Origin: Turicimonas muris
Lineage (GTDB): Bacteria > Pseudomonadota > Gammaproteobacteria > Burkholderiales > Burkholderiaceae_F
Direction of reading: 5' to 3'
NCBI RefSeq assembly: GCF_002221595.1
Contig: NZ_NHMP01000007.1
Coordinates: 1 to 64,000 of the forward strand
Length of the DNA stretch: 64,000 bases
The notes below the pieces were generated by a model that was not told the DNA's origin, ran no database searches, and saw only the letters and a program-made list of their open reading frames with translations. The position numbers were made by a program, and so were the translations under genes. Below, one piece after another: positions 3,400-60,700 of this stretch (the first letter of the stretch is position 1; the number at the start of each line of letters is the position of its first letter).

Positions 3400-4809
3400 A
3401 TGAGTAAAACATCACGGAATTGGATCATAGTCTTAGGACTAGAACTGATCGTCTGGATCTGTCCTACCCCCGAAGGCTTGACTCCTATGGCATGGCATCT
3501 GTTTGCCATCTTTATAGCAACCATCGCTGGATTTATCCTGCAGCCTATTTCCATGGGTGCGGTTGCTTTCTTAGCTCTCACATTCTGTGCGGTAACCGGC
3601 GTTCTTAAGACCGGCGAAGCATTGATGGGTTTCGGCAACGGCACCATCTGGTTGATCGTCTGCGCCTTCTTCCTTTCCAGAGGCTTTATCAAGACCGGCT
3701 TTGGAAAGAGAATCGCTTTCGTCATCATTAAATACATTGGCCGCTCCTCTCTCTCTTTGGGCTATTCCATCGCTCTTTCAGAACTGGTTATCTCTCCGGC
3801 TATGCCTTCGGCGACAGCACGCGGAGGCGGTGTGTTTTATCCGATCGTTCAGTCCTTAAGCAACGCTTTCGGCTCCTCCCCGGGACCGACAGCCGGTAAA
3901 ATCGGTAAGTACTTGATGCAAGTCGGTTATCACACAGACGCCGTCACTTGTATGATGTTCTTGACATCTATGGCCGGCAACCCCTTGTGCGTAGGATTAG
4001 CTGAAAGCACTTTAGGCGTAGAAGTCACTTGGATGGGTTGGGCTGTTGCCGCAATTGTCCCGGGCTTGATTTCTTTGTTCCTAGTACCTTTGGTCATGCT
4101 CAAGCTCTCTCCTCCGGAACTTAAAGCGATGCCTGACGCTCATAATTTGGCCGTTAAAGAACTCGAAAATATGGGTCCAATGACTCTCCAAGAAAAGGTT
4201 TTGGCATTTGTTTTCGTTCTTTGCCTTATCCTGTGGGCAACCGGAAGCTGGACAAAGCTGGGCGCAACACCTGTCGCTATGCTTGCTGTGTCTATTATGC
4301 TGGTCTTCAAAGTTTTAGATTGGAAAGACATCCTTTCTGAAAAAGGCGCATGGGACGCAATGTTCTGGATGGGCGGCTTGGTAGCATTAGCAACCGCATT
4401 AGCAAAATCCGGATTTATTGCTTGGATCGCTAAGATTATCGGCACAGCAATCGCTGCTGCAAATCTTGGCTGGATTGCTTCCTTTATCGCTATCACCCTT
4501 ATTTACACATACTCTCACTATTGCTTCGCGTCCGTTACAACTCGTATTTCCGCCATGTATGCAGCATTCATCGCTGTTGCTGCAGCCTGCGGTGTTCCGG
4601 GTTTGTTAGTCGCTTTGGCATTCGGCTTCTTCGCCAACTGCCCGATTTCTCTTACTCACTACGGTAACGGTTGCGGCCCTGTTTACTTCGGTGCCGGTTA
4701 TGTCTCTCAGAGCGAATGGTGGAGAAACGGTTTCGTAATTTGCACTATCAACGTTGTGATTTGGCTCACAATTGGTATGGCTTGGTGGAAGGTCATCGGT
4801 TTATACTAA
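3400..4809 (+). CDS. DASS-family anion:sodium symporter (SLC13/CitT type)
   Basis: A 469-residue polytopic inner-membrane protein of the divalent anion:sodium symporter family, which imports di- and tricarboxylates or sulfate. Family features are the hydrophobic repeats, the loop GNGTIWLIVCAFFLSRGFIKTG near residue 80, the segment ELVISPAMPSATARGGGVFYPI near 125-145, and a matching C-terminal half with TYSHYCFASVTTRISAMY. The length is normal for the family. AGGAAG lies seven bases before ATG. The substrate cannot be told from sequence; succinate, malate, citrate or 2-oxoglutarate are plausible and would fit an asaccharolytic lifestyle. It is a single gene, closed by a strong terminator. Confidence 0.88.
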   Translation: MSKTSRNWIIVLGLELIVWICPTPEGLTPMAWHLFAIFIATIAGFILQPISMGAVAFLALTFCAVTGVLKTGEALMGFGNGTIWLIVCAFFLSRGFIKTGFGKRIAFVIIKYIGRSSLSLGYSIALSELVISPAMPSATARGGGVFYPIVQSLSNAFGSSPGPTAGKIGKYLMQVGYHTDAVTCMMFLTSMAGNPLCVGLAESTLGVEVTWMGWAVAAIVPGLISLFLVPLVMLKLSPPELKAMPDAHNLAVKELENMGPMTLQEKVLAFVFVLCLILWATGSWTKLGATPVAMLAVSIMLVFKVLDWKDILSEKGAWDAMFWMGGLVALATALAKSGFIAWIAKIIGTAIAAANLGWIASFIAITLIYTYSHYCFASVTTRISAMYAAFIAVAAACGVPGLLVALAFGFFANCPISLTHYGNGCGPVYFGAGYVSQSEWWRNGFVICTINVVIWLTIGMAWWKVIGLY

Positions 4810-29695: not shown

Positions 29696-32600
29696 GTTTC
29701 AGTTGAAGGATGTAAGTTTGTACAATTGAAACTTTTTCCACTCAGAAGCTGCTGAATAAGACTTCAGTTTCAGTTGAAGGATGTAAGTTTGTACAATTGA
29801 AACTTAAAGCCGGTAAAAGAGTCGATTGAGATGGTTACGTTTCAGTTGAAGGATGTAAGTTTGTACAATTGAAACTTCTTACCGGGATCCTAAGCAAAAG
29901 TCAGCGGATTCGGCGTTTCAGTTGAAGGATGTAAGTTTGTACAATTGAAACTTCTTACCGGGATCCTAAGCAAAAGTCAGCGGATTCGGCGTTTCAGTTG
30001 AAGGATGTAAGTTTGTACAATTGAAACTTCTACTAATTTTCTTGTTGCACGAGGCCACTTTCGTTTCAGTTGAAGGATGTAAGTTTGTACAATTGAAACT
30101 TAAGGATTGCTTGTTCACCTAAGTGAGCAAGGGAGTTTCAGTTGAAGGATGTAAGTTTGTACAATTGAAACTCCTCTTTAAATTCACAGAAGGAATCATC
30201 GAAAAGGTTTCAGTTGAAGGATGTAAGTTTGTACAATTGAAACCTTGACGAAGGTCATTAATCGTAATTGCATTGACACGTTTCAGTTGAAGGATGTAAG
30301 TTTGTACAATTGAAACTATGAATTTTTCTTCCGGTTCTGTTTACGACTATTTGTTTCAGTTGAAGGATGTAAGTTTGTACAATTGAAACTAGAAATGATC
30401 TACAAGACCGGGAACACCATAGACGTTTCAGTTGAAGGATGTAAGTTTGTACAATTGAAACTAACAGCCGTTTGGTCCAACCGATTAAAAACTGAATATT
30501 GTTTCAGTTGAAGGATGTAAGTTTGTACAATTGAAACCAAGAGGCGTCCCAACCACAAATCCACCAGAGTAGCGTTTCAGTTGAAGGATGTAAGTTTGTA
30601 CAATTGAAACGATGAGAATCTTCAAAATTCTGTAAATGTTCCGACGTTTCAGTTGAAGGATGTAAGTTTGTACAATTGAAACCGTAAAATTCGTTACTTT
30701 GCTTGCGGTGAGTAGTTTCAGTTGAAGGATGTAAGTTTGTACAATTGAAACTGAATGAATCACCGGGAAGGACTTCGTCAACGTAAAAGTTTCAGTTGAA
30801 GGATGTAAGTTTGTACAATTGAAACCGCGTGGTATTCCTACTCTAAGAAGACTAGTAAGTTTCAGTTGAAGGATGTAAGTTTGTACAATTGAAACCGCGA
30901 TGATTCGCTGTATTCATGAGTCAAAAATGGTTTCAGTTGAAGGATGTAAGTTTGTACAATTGAAACTGATTACATTAGTCGGATTCCTCGTGCACAATAT
31001 GGGTTTCAGTTGAAGGATGTAAGTTTGTACAATTGAAACTCATACCAGGCTGATTAAGCACAGTAGATCCAATACGTTTCAGTTGAAGGATGTAAGTTTG
31101 TACAATTGAAACTACTTCTTTTGCCAACGGCACTGTTTTTGACTACTTGTTTCAGTTGAAGGATGTAAGTTTGTACAATTGAAACTCCTGACCCTGTTTC
31201 GAATTTCAATCTTTTGAAGCGGTTTCAGTTGAAGGATGTAAGTTTGTACAATTGAAACTTTAACAAGTCCTTTGTGGAACATGGTTATATTATGTTTCAG
31301 TTGAAGGATGTAAGTTTGTACAATTGAAACTGCAAGTGTGCTCGTCCTATGCCGGTTTACGGTGTACGTTTCAGTTGAAGGATGTAAGTTTGTACAATTG
31401 AAACGCACTGACCGCACGGAATTTGAAAATGCGTATAGTTTCAGTTGAAGGATGTAAGTTTGTACAATTGAAACGAGGTACTCGCTACACAGAAATTCTC
31501 CGGTCTCATTTGTTTCAGTTGAAGGATGTAAGTTTGTACAATTGAAACGCCTGACGCTCGTTTGCAACGGCCGGAGTACTTGGGGTTTCAGTTGAAGGAT
31601 GTAAGTTTGTACAATTGAAACTTGCTAATTTAGGCTCTTCGCTTCTGTCTGACGCTACGTTTCAGTTGAAGGATGTAAGTTTGTACAATTGAAACGGCGC
31701 CACCAACACCGCCGGATAAAAAACTACCAAGTTTCAGTTGAAGGATGTAAGTTTGTACAATTGAAACATACACTGACCGCAAGGAATTTGAAAGTGCGTG
31801 TAGTTTCAGTTGAAGGATGTAAGTTTGTACAATTGAAACAAAGAAGAAAGTTTCTAAGTAGACGTTATCCATGAAGTTTCAGTTGAAGGATGTAAGTTTG
31901 TACAATTGAAACTTTCCAATCATCCTTCCGATTTTAGTCTTGTCTGGATGTTTCAGTTGAAGGATGTAAGTTTGTACAATTGAAACGACGTAAAATTCGT
32001 TATTTCGCTTGTGGCGAGTAGTTTCAGTTGAAGGATGTAAGTTTGTACAATTGAAACCTCGACCCCCCAACCTACTGATGTCGGTAATAAGGTTTCAGTT
32101 GAAGGATGTAAGTTTGTACAATTGAAACTTCCAGATTCAGAAGTTACTAGAGCGTGATGCCCGGTTTCAGTTGAAGGATGTAAGTTTGTACAATTGAAAC
32201 TTCGATGATGCTACTCGTTCTTTTCAAGGCATCTATTTGTTTCAGTTGAAGGATGTAAGTTTGTACAATTGAAACGACGTAAAATTCGTTATTATGCTTG
32301 TGGCGAGTAGTTTCAGTTGAAGGATGTAAGTTTGTACAATTGAAACGCTATTTTTGATTCTGTAGCTAATGAGTACAATCCTCGTTTCAGTTGAAGGATG
32401 TAAGTTTGTACAATTGAAACGCAATCAACCTACGTTATTTAGGTATTTTAATTCGTTTCAGTTGAAGGATGTAAGTTTGTACAATTGAAACGATAAGATT
32501 TTCGTTAAATACGGAAACCGCCTCTCAGTTTCAGTTGAAGGATGTAAGTTTGTACAATTGAAACTAAGAATAGCTTGTTCGCCTAAGTGCGCCAGAGAGT

Positions 32601-33356
32601 TTCAGTTGAAGGATGTAAGTTTGTACAATTGAAACTTGACTGCAAGTGTGCTCGAGCTATGCCTGTTTAGTTTCAGTTGAAGGATGTAAGTTTGTACAAT
32701 TGAAACCGACACCGGATACATTAGCAAATCCGGCCCTTACACGTTTCAGTTGAAGGATGTAAGTTTGTACAATTGAAACGCGGTTGAATGTCTCTTCGCC
32801 GTTAATCTTTGTTAAGTTTCAGTTGAAGGATGTAAGTTTGTACAATTGAAACTGAAATTTGAAACAGGGTCAGGACCGTCACCCATGTTTCAGTTGAAGG
32901 ATGTAAGTTTGTACAATTGAAACTTGGCAGCTTATGGTCTTGCTTCTGATGTCCGTCGGTTTCAGTTGAAGGATGTAAGTTTGTACAATTGAAACCCAAG
33001 AAAGACAAGACTAAAATCCATAGGATGATGTTTCAGTTGAAGGATGTAAGTTTGTACAATTGAAACACAACAAACGTCTAATACGAACGATGTTTCCCCG
33101 CAGTTTCAGTTGAAGGATGTAAGTTTGTACAATTGAAACGACGCAACTTACTCAACAGTTGCTCAATCGTGCTCGTTTCAGTTGAAGGATGTAAGTTTGT
33201 ACAATTGAAACTCAATCGTGCGATGTTAGAGACGCAACTTACTCAACGTTTCAGTTGAAGGATGTAAGTTTGTACAATTGAAACTTCAACAAATCTTTTG
33301 TTGAGCATGGCTATATCATGTTTCAGTTGAAGGATGTAAGTTTGTACAATTGAAAC
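29696..33356 (+). CRISPR. CRISPR array 1: 51 repeats, 50 spacers
   Basis: By my reading 51 intact 37-bp repeats (start GTTTCAGTTGAAGGATG, end TTTGTACAATTGAAAC) alternate with 50 spacers of 32-39 bp, mostly 34-36. The crRNA strand is plus, inferred from the tracrRNA anti-repeat and from NGG motifs 3' of protospacers. Spacers 3 and 4 are identical. At least 19 spacers encode peptides of gokushovirus capsid or replication proteins. Several are homologous sets: 14/32/36, 24/29, 22/50, 9/20, 6/40, 21/44, 23/41, 31/46, 48/49. All repeats appear identical except the decayed one upstream. Confidence 0.98.
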
Positions 33357-50689: not shown

Positions 50690-53600
50690 GTTTCAATTGT
50701 ACAAACTTACATCCTTCAACTGAAACGGTCTTGGTTTGACGGGTGGCTGCGTGCGATGATGTTTCAATTGTACAAACTTACATCCTTCAACTGAAACAGT
50801 CAACTGTGGCGGAAAAATGAAGAAGTTCCGTGTTTCAATTGTACAAACTTACATCCTTCAACTGAAACATGCATTCATCATTTCGCGCCTGCGGAGGAAA
50901 AAGTTTCAATTGTACAAACTTACATCCTTCAACTGAAACAGCGGTGCTATTACTTATCGTTCTGATCTTCTTAGCGTTTCAATTGTACAAACTTACATCC
51001 TTCAACTGAAACGAGAAGAAAAAGTAATAGCACGATTGCCTTTACTAGGTTTCAATTGTACAAACTTACATCCTTCAACTGAAACTTACGGAAAACTTTG
51101 CGGGAACGTCTACGGGTTAAGTTTCAATTGTACAAACTTACATCCTTCAACTGAAACAAACTGAAGACGAATATCCGAAGGTAAAGATTCAAAGTTTCAA
51201 TTGTACAAACTTACATCCTTCAACTGAAACAACCGCCGGAGTTTGCTGACAAAATCGGATTTAAGTTTCAATTGTACAAACTTACATCCTTCAACTGAAA
51301 CAAACCACTCATTCCAAATAAGGTTATATGCTCGAAGTTTCAATTGTACAAACTTACATCCTTCAACTGAAACTGCGGAGAAACATCGTTAGTGTTCGAT
51401 GTCTGTTGGTTTCAATTGTACAAACTTACATCCTTCAACTGAAACTCATTACCATGCAATTATTTTCAATTGCGATTTTGTTTCAATTGTACAAACTTAC
51501 ATCCTTCAACTGAAACTGAGGCAACGTCTTGAACATTGCACTTTCATTAGGCGTTTCAATTGTACAAACTTACATCCTTCAACTGAAACAAATGAGCAAG
51601 AGACGGCCAATAAAAATCGAATCTGTTTCAATTGTACAAACTTACATCCTTCAACTGAAACGTAAAAATCGAATCTAGAACGTCTAGACCACATACGGTT
51701 TCAATTGTACAAACTTACATCCTTCAACTGAAACGTTGTTGGTTTTGAGGGTGTTAGGTTTAACGTTAGGTTTCAATTGTACAAACTTACATCCTTCAAC
51801 TGAAACACTGGTGATGGTCCTGACCCGATTTCGAATTTCAAGTTTCAATTGTACAAACTTACATCCTTCAACTGAAACTTGCATCAGCAGAACGAGCTAA
51901 CCGACAGCCAATAGTTTCAATTGTACAAACTTACATCCTTCAACTGAAACGGCAAAACTTCATCGACATAAAACGGAACTAAATAGTTTCAATTGTACAA
52001 ACTTACATCCTTCAACTGAAACTATCTTCCTGCGGCCGTTGGGCAATTCTTGGACACTGTTTCAATTGTACAAACTTACATCCTTCAACTGAAACGTACT
52101 GGTTTAAATAGCGCACTTTCCCTTGCAAATGAGTTTCAATTGTACAAACTTACATCCTTCAACTGAAACTTTTGGTCCATTCCTAACCGCTGAATACTGT
52201 TTGGTTTCAATTGTACAAACTTACATCCTTCAACTGAAACCTGTGAGGGCCGAATAGTCCACGCTAAGGTATCCGTGTTTCAATTGTACAAACTTACATC
52301 CTTCAACTGAAACACGACAAAAACGCTTCCAGCAAGGATTGATTGAAGTTTCAATTGTACAAACTTACATCCTTCAACTGAAACATAAACGATGTTAGTC
52401 CATCTATCACGCCACGGTAAGTTTCAATTGTACAAACTTACATCCTTCAACTGAAACCATTCATCAATGTGGATATTTAGACCGCTGACATGTTTCAATT
52501 GTACAAACTTACATCCTTCAACTGAAACAAAATCGGCTCACGGCCGAGGACATAAAGCAGATGAGTTTCAATTGTACAAACTTACATCCTTCAACTGAAA
52601 CAGAAACAGGCTGAACAACAGCGGGAAGCTATGCGGTTTCAATTGTACAAACTTACATCCTTCAACTGAAACTCAGCAGATACGCAAGCGGATCGCATTC
52701 TTTAGTTTCAATTGTACAAACTTACATCCTTCAACTGAAACAAGCCCATCCCGGCCCAGACAGCGCACCTCTTGTGGGTTTCAATTGTACAAACTTACAT
52801 CCTTCAACTGAAACTCATTACCATGCAATTATTTTCAATTGCGATTTTGTTTCAATTGTACAAACTTACATCCTTCAACTGAAACTGAGGCAACGTCTTG
52901 AACATTGCACTTTCATTAGGCGTTTCAATTGTACAAACTTACATCCTTCAACTGAAACAAATGAGCAAGAGACGGCCAATAAAAATCGAATCTGTTTCAA
53001 TTGTACAAACTTACATCCTTCAACTGAAACGTAAAAATCGAATCTAGAACGTCTAGACCACATACGGTTTCAATTGTACAAACTTACATCCTTCAACTGA
53101 AACGTTGTTGGTTTTGAGGGTGTTAGGTTTAACGTTAGGTTTCAATTGTACAAACTTACATCCTTCAACTGAAACACTGGTGATGGTCCTGACCCGATTT
53201 CGAATTTCAAGTTTCAATTGTACAAACTTACATCCTTCAACTGAAACTTGCATCAGCAGAACGAGCTAACCGACAGCCAATAGTTTCAATTGTACAAACT
53301 TACATCCTTCAACTGAAACTATCTTCCTGCGGCCGTTGGGCAATTCTTGGACACTGTTTCAATTGTACAAACTTACATCCTTCAACTGAAACGCTGAGCG
53401 GCTTGTGCTCTGGCCATGAGATTTTTGTTTCAATTGTACAAACTTACATCCTTCAACTGAAACCTGTGAGGGCCGAATAGTCCACGCTAAGGTATCCGTG
53501 TTTCAATTGTACAAACTTACATCCTTCAACTGAAACACGACAAAAACGCTTCCAGCAAGGATTGATTGAAGTTTCAATTGTACAAACTTACATCCTTCAA

Positions 53601-53967
53601 CTGAAACATAAACGATGTTAGTCCATCTATCACGCCACGGTAAGTTTCAATTGTACAAACTTACATCCTTCAACTGAAACCATTCATCAATGTGGATATT
53701 TAGACCGCTGACATGTTTCAATTGTACAAACTTACATCCTTCAACTGAAACAAAATCGGCTCACGGCCGAGGACATAAAGCAGATGAGTTTCAATTGTAC
53801 AAACTTACATCCTTCAACTGAAACAGAAACAGGCTGAACAACAGCGGGAAGCTATGCGGTTTCAATTGTACAAACTTACATCCTTCAACTGAAACGGCTT
53901 AATAGTGATCGGGGTGTTCTTTTCACCCTTGTTTCAATTGTACAAACTTACATCCTTCAACTGAAAC
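50690..53967 (-). CRISPR. CRISPR array 2: 46 repeats, 45 spacers
   Basis: By my reading 46 identical 37-bp repeats in inverse orientation to array 1 (plus strand starts GTTTCAATTGTACAAAC, ends CATCCTTCAACTGAAAC) and 45 spacers of 33-37 bp. The crRNA strand is minus, co-directional with the cas genes. Counting from 50690, spacers 11-27 recur as 30-44 in the same order with three losses and one extra. Spacers 10, 16 (=35) and 18 encode gokushovirus capsid peptides. Spacers 13 and 14 come from overlapping protospacers. Confidence 0.98.
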
Positions 53968-54124: not shown

Positions 54125-54736
54125 CTAAAATCTATCTGCACAGAAGTTTAAATATTCGCATTGGCAACATTGCCTCTCACTTGCACTGCTCTCAGGTAAT
54201 AGACCTGCAACAAGGGAGGCTTTGATGTACTCTAAGCACTTCTTTACATCTTCTCTTTTCTGCTCATCAATCCTTATGCCAAATACTTTGCCCTTTTTCC
54301 CTAAAACCAAGAAGCCTTGTTGTATAGATTTACAATATTTTTCTTCCAGTGCAAGCGCATAAGCTGAGAGCTGGAGCACATGAGCTCTCCTTATTTCTTC
54401 TTTTTCAGCCAATTTAAACTCGATCGGGCAAATATCTCCCGAGTTGAAGAAAAAGACCCCGTCCACTCTGCCGTGAAACTTAAGAAGTTCACTTTTAACG
54501 TCTACATGGGGTACAAACCTTCCCTCATCAAAGCGAACTGAAGAAAGATTTCGACGTCTCTGCAAAACCGACATCCTCTCATGAAAGCTCAGTCCTTCCT
54601 CAACCCATGGTTTTAGTTCGGGGCTGATGCCATAAACGAGATAGAAAAAAGGTATTCTTGGACAAAAACAATATTGCCGAATTAAAGAAATGGGAATACT
54701 GTCTTCAAAGGAAAAGATATCCGTCGGCTTCAACAT
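54125..54736 (-). CDS. cas4: CRISPR-associated exonuclease Cas4
   Basis: 203 residues of the PD-(D/E)XK family. An N-terminal Cys in RQYCFCPRIPFF and a C-terminal CCQCEYLNFC cluster are the iron-sulfur ligands. The nuclease core is GRVDGVFFF (Asp), PIEFKLAEK (Glu-x-Lys) and QLSAYALALE (Q-x3-Y). Cas4 trims prespacers and checks the PAM during adaptation. Its presence with cas9 defines type II-B. It overlaps cas2 by 32 bp. Confidence 0.93.
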   Translation of the reverse strand: MLKPTDIFSFEDSIPISLIRQYCFCPRIPFFYLVYGISPELKPWVEEGLSFHERMSVLQRRRNLSSVRFDEGRFVPHVDVKSELLKFHGRVDGVFFFNSGDICPIEFKLAEKEEIRRAHVLQLSAYALALEEKYCKSIQQGFLVLGKKGKVFGIRIDEQKREDVKKCLEYIKASLVAGLLPESSASERQCCQCEYLNFCADRF

Positions 54737-54995
54737 ATTGAAAATCTCTATATCCCAAACAGGCCCGTACTTTATTTATATCTAAGTGGCAAGGGAACCA
54801 CAAGCACCTGTCCTCTTCGTCCAATAAAACTTTTCTTGCGAGAACCTCTAAACTTCGAGCCTCTGGCGGGTTAAGACCTCCATAGAAGACTGATTTTTGC
54901 AGTGGTACCAAACCCAACTCTTTTAGAGAATCCGAAAACTTCTTCCTTCTCGTGCTGTCAGAAACGTCATAGCAGACCAAATAATTTACATACAT
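54705..54995 (-). CDS. cas2: CRISPR-associated endoribonuclease-fold protein Cas2
   Basis: 96 residues starting MYVNYLVCYDVSDSTRRKKFSDSL, the usual Cas2 ferredoxin-like beginning with the Asp in YDVSD, followed by LVPLQKSVFYGG. It is the structural partner of Cas1 in spacer integration. Located 7 bp after cas1 and overlapping cas4. Confidence 0.95.
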   Translation of the reverse strand: MYVNYLVCYDVSDSTRRKKFSDSLKELGLVPLQKSVFYGGLNPPEARSLEVLARKVLLDEEDRCLWFPCHLDINKVRACLGYRDFQYVEADGYLFL

Positions 54996-55002
54996 TTCTT
55001 CC

Positions 55003-56010
55003 TCACCACTTGAAAGTTAACCCTTTATATCTTTTCTGACCCACAAACGTTGCGCAAAGCCGGTAAACCTGTCGCTGTAGGACATTTTCTAAGCGGCATT
55101 TTTTCCCTTTGTATAGCACCAATCCAGACATTACCGCGTCAATATTGTCTGAAATTTGCTTCTTTAAATTTTTATCCAAAAGCTGTCGATTCTCATCTTC
55201 ACCTTTTTCTAAACAGGATTTCATTTTTATAATCGTCCGATCCACAACCCAAGCCCTATATTCTTCCATCAGATCGAGAGCTAGCGACGGTTTGCCAGGT
55301 CGATCGACATGCAAAAATCCGGCATACAGCTCCAACCCGGCGTTGGCCAGAGCAGAATGCACATAGCTTTGTAGAATTGCGTAGGCGTAGTTGAGAGCTG
55401 CATTTGTTATCTCTTGTGCTCCTCTGCCCTCTCGATTAGTAAATGTTGAAGGAAGAAGATGAGTATCCCGAAGAGCTTGCCAGTAGTGGACAGAAACTCG
55501 GCCCTCAATACCTAGAAGCCTGTCTCTCCATTCTGTCTCTTTTGTGTTGATAGAACTGATAGCGTTTAGAAGAGGATTAATGTCATCAGCTTTATCCTTC
55601 AGCAATTTACCAGCAGGTAGTCCTTTTTTGCATAAATACTTGCTGAAATAGAGTAATACCGCACGTTGATTCTTGATTTTTGTCTTTATAACTTCTTGTG
55701 CTAGGGAGCAACTGTTTTCTGAATTAATAAAATCGAATTGACTCTTTCGTACTTTGACAACAGCATGTTGGTACGTTCCAGATAGTTCGCTGACCCCTAC
55801 ACCTCTCCAATCAAGAAACACAAGTTTAATTCCCCGAGCCGCACAGGCTAAAACAAGATCAGAAGACAACGCAATGTGTCGCTCCAACCTCACAGTTCTT
55901 AATCGCGAGAGTGGAGCTTCATAAATGACTCGGTTGTCTTCTTTAACTACAAGCAAATTTCCCTTCAGGCCTACAAAGCTTCCTACGGAGGAAATTGTAA
56001 GATGTCTCAT
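55003..56010 (-). CDS. cas1: CRISPR integrase Cas1
   Basis: 335 residues with the Cas1 fold. The N-terminal beta domain is LTISSVGSFVGLKGNLLVVKEDNRVIYEAPLSRLRTV. The helical catalytic part has NAALNYAYAILQSYVHSALANAGLELYAGFLHVDRPGKPSLALDLMEEYRAWVVDR, with the metal-binding His in LHVD and Asp/Glu in DLMEEYR. It integrates spacers with Cas2. The cas9 gene ends 4 bp upstream. Confidence 0.96.
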   Translation of the reverse strand: MRHLTISSVGSFVGLKGNLLVVKEDNRVIYEAPLSRLRTVRLERHIALSSDLVLACAARGIKLVFLDWRGVGVSELSGTYQHAVVKVRKSQFDFINSENSCSLAQEVIKTKIKNQRAVLLYFSKYLCKKGLPAGKLLKDKADDINPLLNAISSINTKETEWRDRLLGIEGRVSVHYWQALRDTHLLPSTFTNREGRGAQEITNAALNYAYAILQSYVHSALANAGLELYAGFLHVDRPGKPSLALDLMEEYRAWVVDRTIIKMKSCLEKGEDENRQLLDKNLKKQISDNIDAVMSGLVLYKGKKCRLENVLQRQVYRLCATFVGQKRYKGLTFKW

Positions 56011-56013
56011 AGC

Positions 56014-59000
56014 TTATGCAGTCACGTAAGAGAACTTAACCGTACTTCCAACTAGCTCAATATTCATCGTAAATTTCTTATTATTCTCCCTAGGTTTTGG
56101 GAAGAACTGTGCCAGTTCTTCGTTCTTATAAATGCCCTCCTCAAAAAAATCTTTTGTCTCACGTATGACTTTACTTGGAAGAGTTAAGGAACTTTTATCT
56201 TTGGCTTTTTGCAGTTCTTTATCCCACAATAGATAAAGATCAAACGGTAGCGTGGCTCTAATGTATCGGCGGGCTTTCGTGCCGGGTGCGTGCTCGACTA
56301 TTACTCCTTCTTTTTCATAAACGGTCTTCCACTCGTCCATTTTTACACACTCGTTAACAGGCTGATACTGGTATTCATAAATTTTTAGATTTTTGGTTGT
56401 TAATCGAGGATGTGGTAGCGGAGAATTAAATAAAATCTTGCCGTCCTTCTTAGAAAAACCATAATAAAGCTGATTTGCATCAATTGATTGGTAAACGTAC
56501 CCATCTCGAAAGTCTTTTCTTCTTATACGCACTGCACCCGATTGACTTGCTAGCATGGGTAAGCTCATAGATCTTTTAACTTTTTTATGTCTTACACTGC
56601 TCTTTTCCGATGTTGTCCATAAAGAAGATAACCTGGCATTTACTTCTTCCAATCCTCCTTCTGGGCAAGCAGTCAGGAAATTACTCAATTCCTCTGATAG
56701 TTCTTGCCATCTCTTATAAGAGGGATAGACAATATTTCCTTTTGCTGAAAATTGTCTTTCTCTGTCTCTCAGCTCCAATTTAAGCAAAAATTCTCTCTTG
56801 AAGTTAGATTGATATTTCGACTTCAATTTAATTTTTTTAGAGGCCGTATCTACCAATTCTGTCAATACCTCTTGCTTCAAAGTAGTGTAATGAAGCTGAT
56901 TCAGAAGACTAAGCTGCCTTGATTCATCGTTAGATAATAAAGCACAACCGGCTTTGCCCATCAACTGGAAAGCTTTAGTTTTGTCAATGCGGTAAGTGCC
57001 TTCGTCTTTACTCTCGTTCCTTTTTTCAAAGAACGGTTCAAGAATCTGTAACAAGAGATGAGGATTCTTACCCTTGACCTGAGTCAGACTCTCTTTTTCA
57101 TTAGAGCCTTTTTTATCGTTATCAAATCCAACAAAAACCTCCTCCTTCTTTTTATAAATATTCAAAAATCTTTCTGCATATATAGTGTCTTTAAAGATAG
57201 CCGAATTATTAATTCGATCTTTTTGAGAAAAAGATTTTGGAGATATCTGAACCACTTGACACGTTTCAGGATATAACTTTTTAAGAAGTTGGGCGGCTCT
57301 CATACTATGTGAATCGGCTAGCAGAGCGTCCCCATGGAGGACACATTCTGCACTCGCATCTCCACATGCGGCTGCATAAACGCACATCGCATCAACGCTG
57401 TGAGAGGAGACGGATTGAATGTCTTCTTTAAACATGGAGTTTTCAAGCTCTCCCAGCTGTGAACGCAACGAGCTCACAGTGACAGCGGGAATCGAAAATG
57501 CATCAAAAGATAACTTGTTGCCGGTCTCTGTTAGCCAATTCTGCAAGCCATTTTCTAAGTAGCTTCTAAGAGTTCGTATAAACCAAGCTTGGGAACCATT
57601 AACTACTGTTTTTCTGCGAGCTCCCAAAACTGAGAGCACCTCTTTTCTGGCATCGCTTCCAGGATTTAGAAATAGAGCGTGGCGTACACAATTCCTTTCC
57701 TCTTGGCTTAACAAATCTAGATATCCGAGTCGTTTGTTTTCGATTAGCTGTTGAACAGTTGATTCTATCTTGCTCTCAATAGTGGAAAAATCAGATGTTC
57801 CGAAAACTGCAGTTAAATAAGCGGAATTGAGTTGTTTAAGGAAGTAGAGATTTTCCTTTTTAGCCGCATTTCCCTGTCTGGATACGAAAATGAGATTAAC
57901 TTCAGAATTAAAAATTGAAGAATAATTTTTGATAGTTTTGCTTCTGGGAATAATATGGTCTACTTCCCCTTCGCTATTTAGAGGCGCACCTGTGTACGCA
58001 CAGATTCCCTTAGCATCATCTTTGATTCTTTCTTCTTTAGAGAGCCATTTCTTTTTCTGAGCCTCTCCGGCTTTTTCGATCTTTTCTTGTTTCTTTTTAA
58101 GTCTTGAATCCGATAACTCTAACCGTTTAAGTTCCAGCAAGGAGGCCGTAAAATTGAATTTATTCTCTTCAACTAAAATCGGTACTACTATCTCGGCGCC
58201 TTGATCTTGAGTGTCCCTCTTGATTTTTTCTATCAGACGTTTACCTACTTCGCGAGCATTTCTCTCTAAAACTCTTCTCATATACCCGTCAAACGGTCTT
58301 ACTGAGTCAGCGGGTAGTGGTCCGCATTGGGCGGCACCATTTTTAAACGTTAATCTCCACGCGTTTTCCAATAAAGCAGCAGTAGTGATTTTGGTAAAGC
58401 CCGATCTTTCTGTCTCGATAATTGTATAAAGTTGTGCTAAAGAGAAGGGATTCGCAAATTTTGTTCTTTGTTCGTCTGACAGTCCCAACTGCTCCCCAAT
58501 AAAAGCCGCAGTCAACGAAACATCCTGCTTCAGCTTCACATATTCTTTTTCTTCTGAATCTAATTTTTCATTACCAAGGGCGGCTTTGGTCAAGGCACTT
58601 TGGTACTCTAAGTTAAAAGCAGAACCTCGATCTTTTCTTAATTGCTCTATGCGAGTACAAATACTTTTTACCGTACTGTTGCCTTTGACCTTTCCGTTCC
58701 AAACGTCAGCAATAAATCTTTTTGCTGTCTCTTCGTCAACTCTTAGGACATTAGCTACAAGACGATCTAAAACTTTTTTCTTCTGTTTTGGATGCAAATC
58801 AGATCTTTCCAGAATAGATTCTTTCTCATTCCACAACCCTTTCTGTGCCTTTGCTACTTCGTAGAAATATCTTCTGGCGAAGTCCAAAAATGGTCCAAAA
58901 TTTTGCTCTTCCAATGTCTTAAACAACAGCAAATTTCTTGTAGCAGCTTCAGAATAAAGTGTAGGGCTCGAAAGTATCTTTCTTATTTCGAAAATATCAT

Positions 59001-60282
59001 TTACCTTGGAGCGGTCTAAAGCTCTTTGAAGAATGTAAGAAAGTCGAAAATCCAAAGAGTCTTGAGTTGTTCTCCTGGATTTTCTATCACGATTCTGCAA
59101 AATAACATCTAAATTGTCTTGCAAATCAGAATCTGCGTTAACCAAACGAGAAGCCCAACTCCTCCATGAGTCGCCGTAGACCTCAGTGAGCTTAGCTGGG
59201 TTAAGGTAAAGAGTGTAGTCAAGAGGAGGTCTGCGATTATTTTGGTCCTCATACGGCGGAATTGTGCTCTTGCAATCTAATTCACACAAGCAGTCAATTA
59301 TGTCATCGGCCTTGGAAAGAGCTCTAATCACGTCTGAAATTCTTGCCTTGTTTTCAGGATCCGGATGAAAGTACTTATAAGCTCTAACCCAGATATCCTT
59401 GAGTTTTTGCTCATTCAAGGGCTGAGAGTTTTCAGTCTCCACAGGCTTAACTTTCTCGATCCAAGGATCGTTAAAATACCAGCGAAGCGCTCTCAGCTGG
59501 AGATTTGATAAATTCCCTATCAAGTTCCAAAACCGGCATATGCCCCCGAAAGCTTCTCCAATTTTTTTCAGCCGAGAATCGCGGCCCATATCGTGAAGAA
59601 TATTATCTAAATACTTTTCTCTGTGCAGATGGCCTAGAGAAGTTAACTCAGAAATTTGTCGAGCTGCCTCAATAATTGTTTTTCTCGCTTCAAGATATCT
59701 TTCTAGACTTTCTTTTGAACTGTAGTCAGGAAAATTATCCTTGACGTATTTTTTAAAGGTTTTTACATCCGGAATTTTTTTATTTGAATTTATTTTATTT
59801 ACTTCGGACAAATCAGCTGTGAGAGAGTTCCACTGAGTTAAAAGTTCAATATCTGAACTAAAGAAATCTTCAAACCCGGGGCACATGGCAAAAACAATCG
59901 GATCTACATCATTCAAGCTATCAAGGTCGATTTCTGTCTCGATTCGTGAATAGCCTCTTCTCTTTAAATATCCTGACAAAGCTTCTGTCAGCTGAGACTT
60001 TTCCTGAGCGCTAAGGACAAAACCTGCTTTCATTAGCTGATGGTCAACAATAAGATTAAGCAGTCTACGAGCCAGAACAAATCTCTTTTTTGATCGGACT
60101 CTGTGCCGCACCGCAGTTCTATGTTTCATAGAGTAGTGAATCTTATCGGAGTTCACAATCGTCATTGCTGTTGCATCGGCAGCAGTAGGGAGAACGCCGT
60201 CGAGATGAGAAAGCATGAAGACGCCGGTATACTTTGCGCCCATATCGATTCCCACAGGGAAAATATACTTAGAAGATTCCAT
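56014..60282 (-). CDS. cas9: Cas9 endonuclease, type II-B
   Basis: 1422 residues, in the long Cas9 class typical of type II-B. RuvC-I VGIDMGAKYTGVFML has Asp13; an Arg-rich bridge helix follows (MKHRTAVRHRVRSKKRFVLARR). RuvC-II is IVVPILVEEN (Glu near 705). The HNH domain has EVDHIIPRSK with Asp775-His776 and Asn in FNSEVNLIFVSRQGNAAK. RuvC-III is SSHSVDAMCVY with His961 and Asp964. All nuclease residues are present, so it should cut both strands. AAGGAG lies seven bases before ATG. Order cas9-cas1-cas2-cas4 and the tracrRNA upstream resemble Francisella II-B. It is expected to use an NGG PAM from the spacer evidence. Confidence 0.98.
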   Translation of the reverse strand: MESSKYIFPVGIDMGAKYTGVFMLSHLDGVLPTAADATAMTIVNSDKIHYSMKHRTAVRHRVRSKKRFVLARRLLNLIVDHQLMKAGFVLSAQEKSQLTEALSGYLKRRGYSRIETEIDLDSLNDVDPIVFAMCPGFEDFFSSDIELLTQWNSLTADLSEVNKINSNKKIPDVKTFKKYVKDNFPDYSSKESLERYLEARKTIIEAARQISELTSLGHLHREKYLDNILHDMGRDSRLKKIGEAFGGICRFWNLIGNLSNLQLRALRWYFNDPWIEKVKPVETENSQPLNEQKLKDIWVRAYKYFHPDPENKARISDVIRALSKADDIIDCLCELDCKSTIPPYEDQNNRRPPLDYTLYLNPAKLTEVYGDSWRSWASRLVNADSDLQDNLDVILQNRDRKSRRTTQDSLDFRLSYILQRALDRSKVNDIFEIRKILSSPTLYSEAATRNLLLFKTLEEQNFGPFLDFARRYFYEVAKAQKGLWNEKESILERSDLHPKQKKKVLDRLVANVLRVDEETAKRFIADVWNGKVKGNSTVKSICTRIEQLRKDRGSAFNLEYQSALTKAALGNEKLDSEEKEYVKLKQDVSLTAAFIGEQLGLSDEQRTKFANPFSLAQLYTIIETERSGFTKITTAALLENAWRLTFKNGAAQCGPLPADSVRPFDGYMRRVLERNAREVGKRLIEKIKRDTQDQGAEIVVPILVEENKFNFTASLLELKRLELSDSRLKKKQEKIEKAGEAQKKKWLSKEERIKDDAKGICAYTGAPLNSEGEVDHIIPRSKTIKNYSSIFNSEVNLIFVSRQGNAAKKENLYFLKQLNSAYLTAVFGTSDFSTIESKIESTVQQLIENKRLGYLDLLSQEERNCVRHALFLNPGSDARKEVLSVLGARRKTVVNGSQAWFIRTLRSYLENGLQNWLTETGNKLSFDAFSIPAVTVSSLRSQLGELENSMFKEDIQSVSSHSVDAMCVYAAACGDASAECVLHGDALLADSHSMRAAQLLKKLYPETCQVVQISPKSFSQKDRINNSAIFKDTIYAERFLNIYKKKEEVFVGFDNDKKGSNEKESLTQVKGKNPHLLLQILEPFFEKRNESKDEGTYRIDKTKAFQLMGKAGCALLSNDESRQLSLLNQLHYTTLKQEVLTELVDTASKKIKLKSKYQSNFKREFLLKLELRDRERQFSAKGNIVYPSYKRWQELSEELSNFLTACPEGGLEEVNARLSSLWTTSEKSSVRHKKVKRSMSLPMLASQSGAVRIRRKDFRDGYVYQSIDANQLYYGFSKKDGKILFNSPLPHPRLTTKNLKIYEYQYQPVNECVKMDEWKTVYEKEGVIVEHAPGTKARRYIRATLPFDLYLLWDKELQKAKDKSSLTLPSKVIRETKDFFEEGIYKNEELAQFFPKPRENNKKFTMNIELVGSTVKFSYVTA

Positions 60283-60603: not shown

Positions 60604-60700
60604 GAAAAACTCCGGATGGTTAACCCAGAGGCCGGAGCCACAACTTAATTTCGTTGATTTCAGCCCGCAAAAAGCGGCTTCTGAAAGATGTAAGTTTGTT
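60604..60700 (-). ncRNA. Predicted tracrRNA
   Basis: On the minus strand, from about 60700: AACAAACTTACATCTTTCAG pairs with the crRNA repeat over 17 bases with one G-U pair. Then come hairpin 1 (AGCCGC, TTTTT, GCGGGCT; 60662-60679), hairpin 2 (CAAC...GTTG; 60641-60656) and a terminator hairpin CTCCGG...CCGGAG (60610-60637) followed by TTTTT. Length about 97 nt. A good promoter lies directly upstream. Confidence 0.85.

What the first reader, a model, noticed from the sequence alone, without database searches (positions are those of the whole stretch)
29696..33356. CRISPR spacers read out as gokushovirus (Microviridae) capsid and replication proteins
Translated spacers give peptides I recognise from the major capsid protein VP1: FQIQKLLERDA (spacer 34), GTRYTEILRSH (25), PDARLQRPEYL (26), FNKSFVEHGYI (22, 50), FYVDEVLPGDSF (15), FMDNVYLETFFF (30), PDPVSNFNLLK (21), QQTSNTNDVSP (47). 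The replication initiator VP4 gives YTHFQIPCGQC (24, 29) and RKIRYFACGEY (14, 36 with one change, 32). At least 19 of 50 spacers fit. A gut betaproteobacterium whose CRISPR memory is dominated by small ssDNA phages would be a host assignment for gokushoviruses and raises how Cas9 meets an ssDNA phage (through its dsDNA replicative form).
Basis: partly seen in the sequence, partly recalled or inferred. Interest (0 to 1): 0.88.

Follow-up and report, generated by a model that had tools for sequence, protein, structure and literature searches.

The report
Gut bacterium's CRISPR memory of gokushoviruses
Two CRISPR arrays in a gut bacterium related to Sutterella are filled mostly with fragments of tiny single-stranded-DNA phages (gokushoviruses), which points to what those phages infect; similar memories and a family-level host prediction are already in print, so this is a strong new example rather than a new kind of system.

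Summary
The finding holds and is stronger than stated. Arrays A (29696-33356, +, 50 spacers) and B (50690-53967, -, 45 spacers) share one invariant 37-nt repeat and sit with a subtype II-B locus (cas9/csx12, cas1, cas2, cas4, predicted tracrRNA). Of 80 unique spacers, 52 match one 4,680-nt rat microvirus (ON840044.1) at <=30% mismatch (0 of 1,600 shuffles); three are perfect. Of the 52, 41 have NGG at +1..+3 (background 4%). Of 209 mismatches in four coding regions, 157 are at codon position 3. That phage carries gokushovirus hallmark genes. Arrays A and B hit 85 and 76 phage records (overlapping); the 40 and 60 rows shown are all microviruses. The host genome matches the phage only inside the arrays. 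Of 20 other II-B loci with arrays, three (Sutterella wadsworthensis, an Oxalobacter MAG, a Bathymodiolus symbiont) also carry NGG-flanked microvirus spacers and 17 do not. Best reading: Cas9 memory against gokushoviruses, cut as double-stranded replicative form (inferred, untested). Prior art: Legionella spacers against gokushoviruses, and a 2025 virome study that predicts Sutterellaceae as hosts of Malgrandaviricetes. New member of a known kind.

The parts
29696..33356 (+). CRISPR array A: 51 identical repeats GTTTCAGTTGAAGGATGTAAGTTTGTACAATTGAAAC, 50 spacers (49 unique); 36 of 49 match ON840044.1
33357..33460 (+). Putative leader of array A (3' side in repeat orientation; CTCAGCTAA...TTAGCTGAG inverted repeat and TTCGAAA / CTGCACGAAAAGTGCC motifs)
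   Evidence: by eye: shared with the array B flank and in part with Parasutterella array flanks
50690..53967 (-). CRISPR array B: 46 identical repeats, 45 spacers (31 unique; B02-B07 reappear as B19-B24, and B09-B16 as B27 and B29-B35); 16 of 31 match ON840044.1
50580..50689 (-). Putative leader of array B, on the side away from cas4
   Evidence: by eye
54125..54736 (-). cas4 (203 aa)
   Evidence: PF01930, TIGR00372 above cut-off
54705..54995 (-). cas2 (96 aa)
   Evidence: TIGR01573 above cut-off
55003..56010 (-). cas1 (335 aa)
   Evidence: PF01867, TIGR00287 above cut-off
56014..60282 (-). cas9 / csx12, subtype II-B (1422 aa)
   Evidence: PF21069, TIGR03031 above cut-off; D13, E705, H776, H961, D964 invariant among four II-B Cas9 (their catalytic role is recalled)
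60605..60700 (-). Predicted tracrRNA: anti-repeat 60700-60656 (interrupted by a hairpin), then a CTCCGG..CCGGAG TTTTT terminator
   Evidence: duplex with the repeat -30.3 kcal/mol, the lowest found outside the arrays in the window, next -27.8; fold, z only -1.9; sequence

Best explanation
The arrays are the memory of a subtype II-B CRISPR-Cas9 system in a Sutterellaceae bacterium that has repeatedly met a diverse population of gokushoviruses. Cas1-Cas2-Cas4, with Cas9 choosing NGG sites, takes pieces from both strands of the phage genome, most likely from the double-stranded replicative form. crRNA paired with tracrRNA then guides Cas9 to cut that replicative form of a returning phage. Shown: gokushovirus origin of most spacers, NGG 3' of the protospacer, both strands used, cas genes of full length, a tracrRNA candidate, no copy of the phage in the host genome outside the arrays. 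Inferred: uptake from and cleavage of the replicative form, and that this strain is or was a host.
For: 52 of 80 unique spacers match one 4,680-nt genome, 0 of 1,600 shuffles; 41 of 52 with NGG; 157 of 209 mismatches in VP1, VP2, Rep and scaffold at codon position 3, so the sources were related phages with conserved proteins. blastn of array A hit 85 phage records and of array B 76; the 40 and 60 rows shown are all microviruses. Array A has no plasmid match (B not searched there). Phage gene content is gokushoviral. The own genome matches the phage only inside the arrays, 37 of 37 places, and has no PF02305 hit. 30 sites lie on the + and 15 on the - strand, and 34 of 52 crRNAs have mRNA sense, which speaks against RNA as target. 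cas9, cas1, cas2 and cas4 score above curated cut-offs; tracrRNA. The same VP1 sites are also targeted in S. wadsworthensis (D22 at the site of A30, D23 at that of A25).
Against: 28 of 80 unique spacers do not match this phage in nucleotides, nor does any of the 7 of array C. 11 of 52 protospacers lack NGG in register; 2 of these regain it with a 1-nt shift. In the wrong orientation the NGG test still gives 3 of 49 in A and 1 of 31 in B. I know of no phage isolated on this host; the host link rests on spacers. Three spacers are perfect with NGG against ON840044.1, so that phage itself should be blocked by this strain and is presumably a relative of those met. A published screen of viromes that included a Turicimonas culture or community found no Microviridae proteins (PMC10197239, passage); whether that species is this host was not tested. 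No expression or interference data.
Confidence: 0.93

Rival explanations
1. The spacers were picked up from gokushovirus DNA that entered the cell without productive infection, so the arrays record exposure rather than host range.
For: Spacers show contact only; the closest phage came from rat and the other hits from many animals and waters.
Against: 36 + 16 unique spacers in two arrays, with six protospacer sites hit by two or three different spacers: repeated uptake from several related phages. The two P. excrementihominis arrays give no microvirus hit, so exposure alone does not fill arrays; but only 9 of its spacers could be tested (masked stretches).
Confidence: 0.06
2. The spacers come from integrated gokushovirus prophages of relatives, not from free ssDNA phages.
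For: A 4,682-nt gokushovirus contig sits in the bin of a same-family genome (G034:C26).
Against: That contig is of whole-virus size and carries no bacterial flank; the other 66 of 67 family genomes have no PF02305 hit; the own genome has no copy outside the arrays.
Confidence: 0.03
3. Chance or composition-driven resemblance.
For: None found.
Against: 0 of 1,600 shuffles; NGG p 1.5e-47 and third-position excess.
Confidence: 0.001

Closest known systems
Subtype II-B CRISPR-Cas (Csx12 Cas9; e.g. Sutterella wadsworthensis)
   Same: Csx12 Cas9, cas1-cas2-cas4 after it, 37-nt repeat, tracrRNA upstream of cas9, NGG
   Different: Two large arrays with one repeat plus a small third; array B runs in the direction of the cas operon, whereas in the three II-B loci whose polarity NGG fixes (L119, L122, L131) it runs opposite
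Legionella pneumophila arrays with Microviridae/gokushovirus spacers (PMC9863629, Table 3 passage; one Microviridae match also in PMC5654357, passage; Deecker et al. 2021, Appl Environ Microbiol, recalled, not held)
   Same: CRISPR spacers matching gokushovirus VP1
   Different: Here the host is a Sutterellaceae bacterium and one phage genome accounts for 52 of 80 spacers with a clear NGG
CRISPR-based prediction of Sutterellaceae as hosts of Malgrandaviricetes in infant gut viromes (PMC12101590, passages read)
   Same: The same family-level host link, at the level of the virus class
   Different: The passages name no system, phage, PAM or site; here the cas locus, the arrays, the phage genes and the PAM are worked out for one genome
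Gokushovirinae (Microviridae)
   Same: ON840044.1 carries Phage_F capsid, Chlamy_scaf, Rep, VP5-like and pilot genes
   Different: Its record says only Microviridae; Microvirus, and no tree was built

Membership tests
Subtype II-B CRISPR-Cas | Csx12-type Cas9 | tested here: met
   TIGR03031 428 bits, cut-off 399.4; PF21069
Subtype II-B CRISPR-Cas | cas1, cas2 and cas4 in the operon | tested here: met
Subtype II-B CRISPR-Cas | tracrRNA complementary to the repeat | tested here: met
   anti-repeat 60700-60656 and terminator by sequence and energy; expression not tested
Subtype II-B CRISPR-Cas | NGG 3' of the protospacer | tested here: met
   41 of 52
Subtype II-B CRISPR-Cas | Interference activity | not testable with these tools
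   needs a bench assay
Gokushovirinae (the target ON840044.1) | F-type major capsid protein | tested here: met
   PF02305 620 bits
Gokushovirinae (the target ON840044.1) | VP3 scaffold of the Chlamydia-phage type | tested here: met
   PF09675 86 bits
Gokushovirinae (the target ON840044.1) | Rep (VP4), VP5-like DNA-binding and VP2 pilot genes | tested here: met
   phrog_942, phrog_1670, phrog_8693
Gokushovirinae (the target ON840044.1) | Capsid phylogeny inside the subfamily | not tested
   only pairwise identities seen (best 63%, to L019)

The most novel reading that the evidence does not exclude
Gokushoviruses are a recurring enemy that helps keep subtype II-B systems in unrelated proteobacteria (Sutterellaceae, Oxalobacter, mussel symbionts), so II-B Cas9 acts in part as an anti-ssDNA-phage system on the replicative form. 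Some of these phages may answer with an RNA copy of the host repeat: OQ686955.1 carries the first 21 nt of this repeat with one change, between two genes and ahead of a terminator.
Probability: 0.12. Interest if true: 0.82.

Novelty: new member of a known kind. Interest (0 to 1): 0.54.

Why it matters
Gokushoviruses are common gut viruses with few known hosts (general knowledge; PMC12101590, passage, says that only Enterobacteriaceae and Bacteroidetes had been shown as hosts of Malgrandaviricetes before its own predictions). Fifty-two spacers against one 4.7-kb genome with the expected NGG is a very strong host link, turns a family-level prediction into a named cas locus, phage and set of sites, and points to a cultivable group (Sutterella, Parasutterella and kin) for isolation. 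It is also a natural case for asking how Cas9 immunity works against a phage that enters as single-stranded DNA.

Tried and rejected
Chance matches: rejected by shuffles, NGG and codon positions. Prophage source: rejected for this genome. Plasmid targets of array A: no match; array B was not searched against plasmids. Other phages for unmatched spacers: array C and B01-B08 gave only weak hits (E 0.6); the one for array C lies on its repeat. A translated test of 35 unmatched spacers (28 of A and B, 7 of C) found A09 and A20 in VP1, and C01 and C03 weakly (1 of 280 shuffles as good). Strand bias: 30 of 45 sites on +, GG supply 200:172, p 0.10, inconclusive. Newer spacers having fewer mismatches: no correlation in A or B. 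Unmatched spacers lie towards the old end (p 0.016 in A, 0.013 for unique spacers of B), which depends on my leader placement. Same-site recurrence: 8 pairs against 3.6 expected, p 0.03, biased because conserved sites are easier to match. Repeat mimic in OQ686955.1: odd for a microvirus (BLAST E 0.3-0.6), but its duplex energy with the tracrRNA is not special (-28 against random microvirus windows down to -43), it folds into its own hairpin, and no second copy turned up; kept only as a lead. G058 match to L019: no repeat array seen there, dropped. Two Rep-based scans of IMG/VR gave 4 and 6 contigs, the latter at most 39% identical; the VP1 scan, capped at 80 of 600 or more, gave 63% at best. 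Repeat count: one search counts 113 repeat-like places in the genome; arrays A, B and C explain 105. Searches did not place the other 8 (two to three changes each), so a fourth array may exist and was not read.

Full report
What is there. Array A (29696-33356, +) has 51 repeats and 50 spacers; array B (50690-53967, -) has 46 and 45. All 97 repeats are identical, and there are 80 unique spacers. A third array of the same genome (array C: 8 repeats, 7 spacers, contig C11, L013) has variant repeats. One search counts 113 repeat-like places; 8 with two to three changes remain unplaced. Next to array B on the - strand lie cas4, cas2, cas1 and a 1422-aa Cas9 of the Csx12 type, all above curated NCBIfam cut-offs: subtype II-B. 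Upstream of cas9 is a predicted tracrRNA: its anti-repeat pairs with the repeat at -30.3 kcal/mol, the lowest found outside the arrays in the window, and a terminator follows. This fixes the crRNA direction and predicts the PAM 3' of the protospacer.

Test of the claim. blastn (11-base words, E<=1) of array A against 50,697 phage records hit 85 records and array B 76, with overlap. I saw 40 of 85 and 60 of 76 rows; all are microviruses by name. ON840044.1 from rat (4,680 nt) took 13 and 12 pieces. An ungapped scan put 52 of 80 unique spacers on that genome at <=30% mismatch, 10 at <=5%, three perfect (A33, A37, B39); none of 1,600 dinucleotide shuffles reached 30%. Counting copies of a spacer, that is 58 of 95. 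NGG follows 41 of 52; the phage's GG frequency is 4.0%, p 1.5e-47. Of 209 mismatches in VP1, VP2, Rep and scaffold, 157 are at third, 34 at first and 18 at second codon positions, so the sources were related phages whose proteins are conserved. By gene: VP1 25, Rep 12, VP2 8, VP5 3, scaffold 3, intergenic 1. Array A has no plasmid match.

What the phage is. ON840044.1 encodes a Phage_F capsid (620 bits), a Chlamydia-phage-type scaffold, a Rep, a VP5-like DNA-binding protein and a pilot protein, the gokushovirus set. I built no tree. The host genome matches it only in the arrays (37 of 37 places) and has no capsid hit; 1 of 67 family genomes has one, on a free-standing 4,682-nt contig.

Host. 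The window's genome belongs to another genus of that family. From memory Turicimonas would fit; this was not tested.

How it most likely works. Sites lie on both strands (30 +, 15 -), and 34 of 52 crRNAs have the sense of the mRNA, so RNA targeting is unlikely and double-stranded DNA is the fitting substrate. For a phage with an ssDNA virion that means the replicative form (established microvirus biology; the cutting is inferred). Six sites are hit by two or three different spacers. A14, A32 and A36, for instance, read the same peptide but for one residue in A36, with different codons, which looks like repeated uptake from diverging phages. Five protospacers with <=3 mismatches lack NGG (A07, A08, A28, A49, B26), three of them reading CAG. 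This could be escape, untested.

Direction of growth. The 3' flanks (repeat orientation) of A and B share about 100 nt. Motifs of it recur beside Parasutterella arrays, while array C lacks the first ~90 nt of it (by eye). I take this side as the leader. A degenerate terminal repeat at the other end of array C and of the S. wadsworthensis array agrees. Unmatched spacers lie towards the old end (p 0.016 in A, 0.013 in B), as do the unmatched D01-D17 in S. wadsworthensis.

How general. Of the 23 II-B loci, 20 had an array by my finder. Against 93 microvirus sequences, requiring NGG and <=27% mismatch: window A 29 of 49, B 14 of 31 (the set includes ON840044.1, which was chosen by these spacers), C 0 of 7; S. 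wadsworthensis 5 of 22, Oxalobacter formigenes MAG 3 of 8, Bathymodiolus sp. 5 South symbiont 6 of 51; the other 17 loci 0 of 208 (one hit without NGG in L136). Shuffles: 1 of 867 for the 20 loci, 0 of 240 for A and B. Wrong orientation: 3 in A, 1 in B, 1 in Oxalobacter, 1 in the symbiont. blastn of the S. wadsworthensis array hit 37 phage records; the 20 rows shown are all microviruses. Its spacers D22 and D23 fall on the VP1 sites of A30 and A25. The two Parasutterella arrays gave only weak hits to unrelated phages. So the pattern recurs but is far from universal in II-B.

What is known. Gokushovirus/Microviridae matches of L. pneumophila spacers are tabulated in PMC9863629 (passage), and one in PMC5654357 (passage). 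A 2021 paper on recurrent Legionella encounters with Microviridae is recalled and not held. PMC12101590 (passages) already predicts Sutterellaceae, from CRISPR spacers, among the hosts of Malgrandaviricetes in infant guts. PMC12927875 (passages) notes Malgrandaviricetes among vent-symbiont spacers. PMC8761997 (passages) finds Microviridae preferentially with Bacteroidetes. PMC11740987 (passages) links Sutterella to tailed phages by spacers. PMC10197239 (passages) found no Microviridae proteins in its viromes. Searches for Gokushovirinae + Sutterella (0 papers) and Gokushovirinae + CRISPR + Parasutterella (0) found no report at the level of gokushoviruses in this open-licence library, which lacks most subscription papers.

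Verdict. Real, well supported and more extensive than reported: a new member of a known kind that gives a precise form to a host link already predicted at family level.

Noticed in passing
OQ686955.1 (L117) 4070-4096: A kangaroo-rat microvirus carries the first 21 nt of the window's CRISPR repeat with one change (it turns a G-U into an A-U pair with the tracrRNA), in an intergenic gap before a terminator: possible repeat-mimic RNA, or a plain hairpin by chance.
   Followed up: partly
window 50690-53967: Array B runs in the direction of the cas operon with its putative leader away from cas4, unlike the three II-B loci whose polarity NGG fixes; arrays A and B face each other and could invert the 17 kb between them by recombination.
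   Followed up: partly
window 51446-53858: Array B contains a large internal duplication: spacers B02-B07 reappear as B19-B24 and B09-B16 as B27 and B29-B35, with a few spacers differing between the copies.
   Followed up: no
L013 4219-4760 (own genome C11): Small third array with variant repeats and a truncated leader-like flank near a transposase-like gene; none of its 7 spacers matches the gokushovirus in nucleotides, as if it stopped recording earlier.
   Followed up: partly
own genome G000, place unknown: Eight further repeat-like sequences with two to three changes are counted but not placed; a fourth array is possible.
   Followed up: partly
L103 (G034:C26, 4682 nt): A gokushovirus contig of whole-virus size is binned in a same-family genome: a further hint that Sutterellaceae are hosts, or a binning error.
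   Followed up: partly
L131 (Bathymodiolus sp. 5 South symbiont): II-B array with 6 of 51 spacers matching microvirus sequences with NGG (1 of 153 shuffles), in a deep-sea mussel symbiont.
   Followed up: partly
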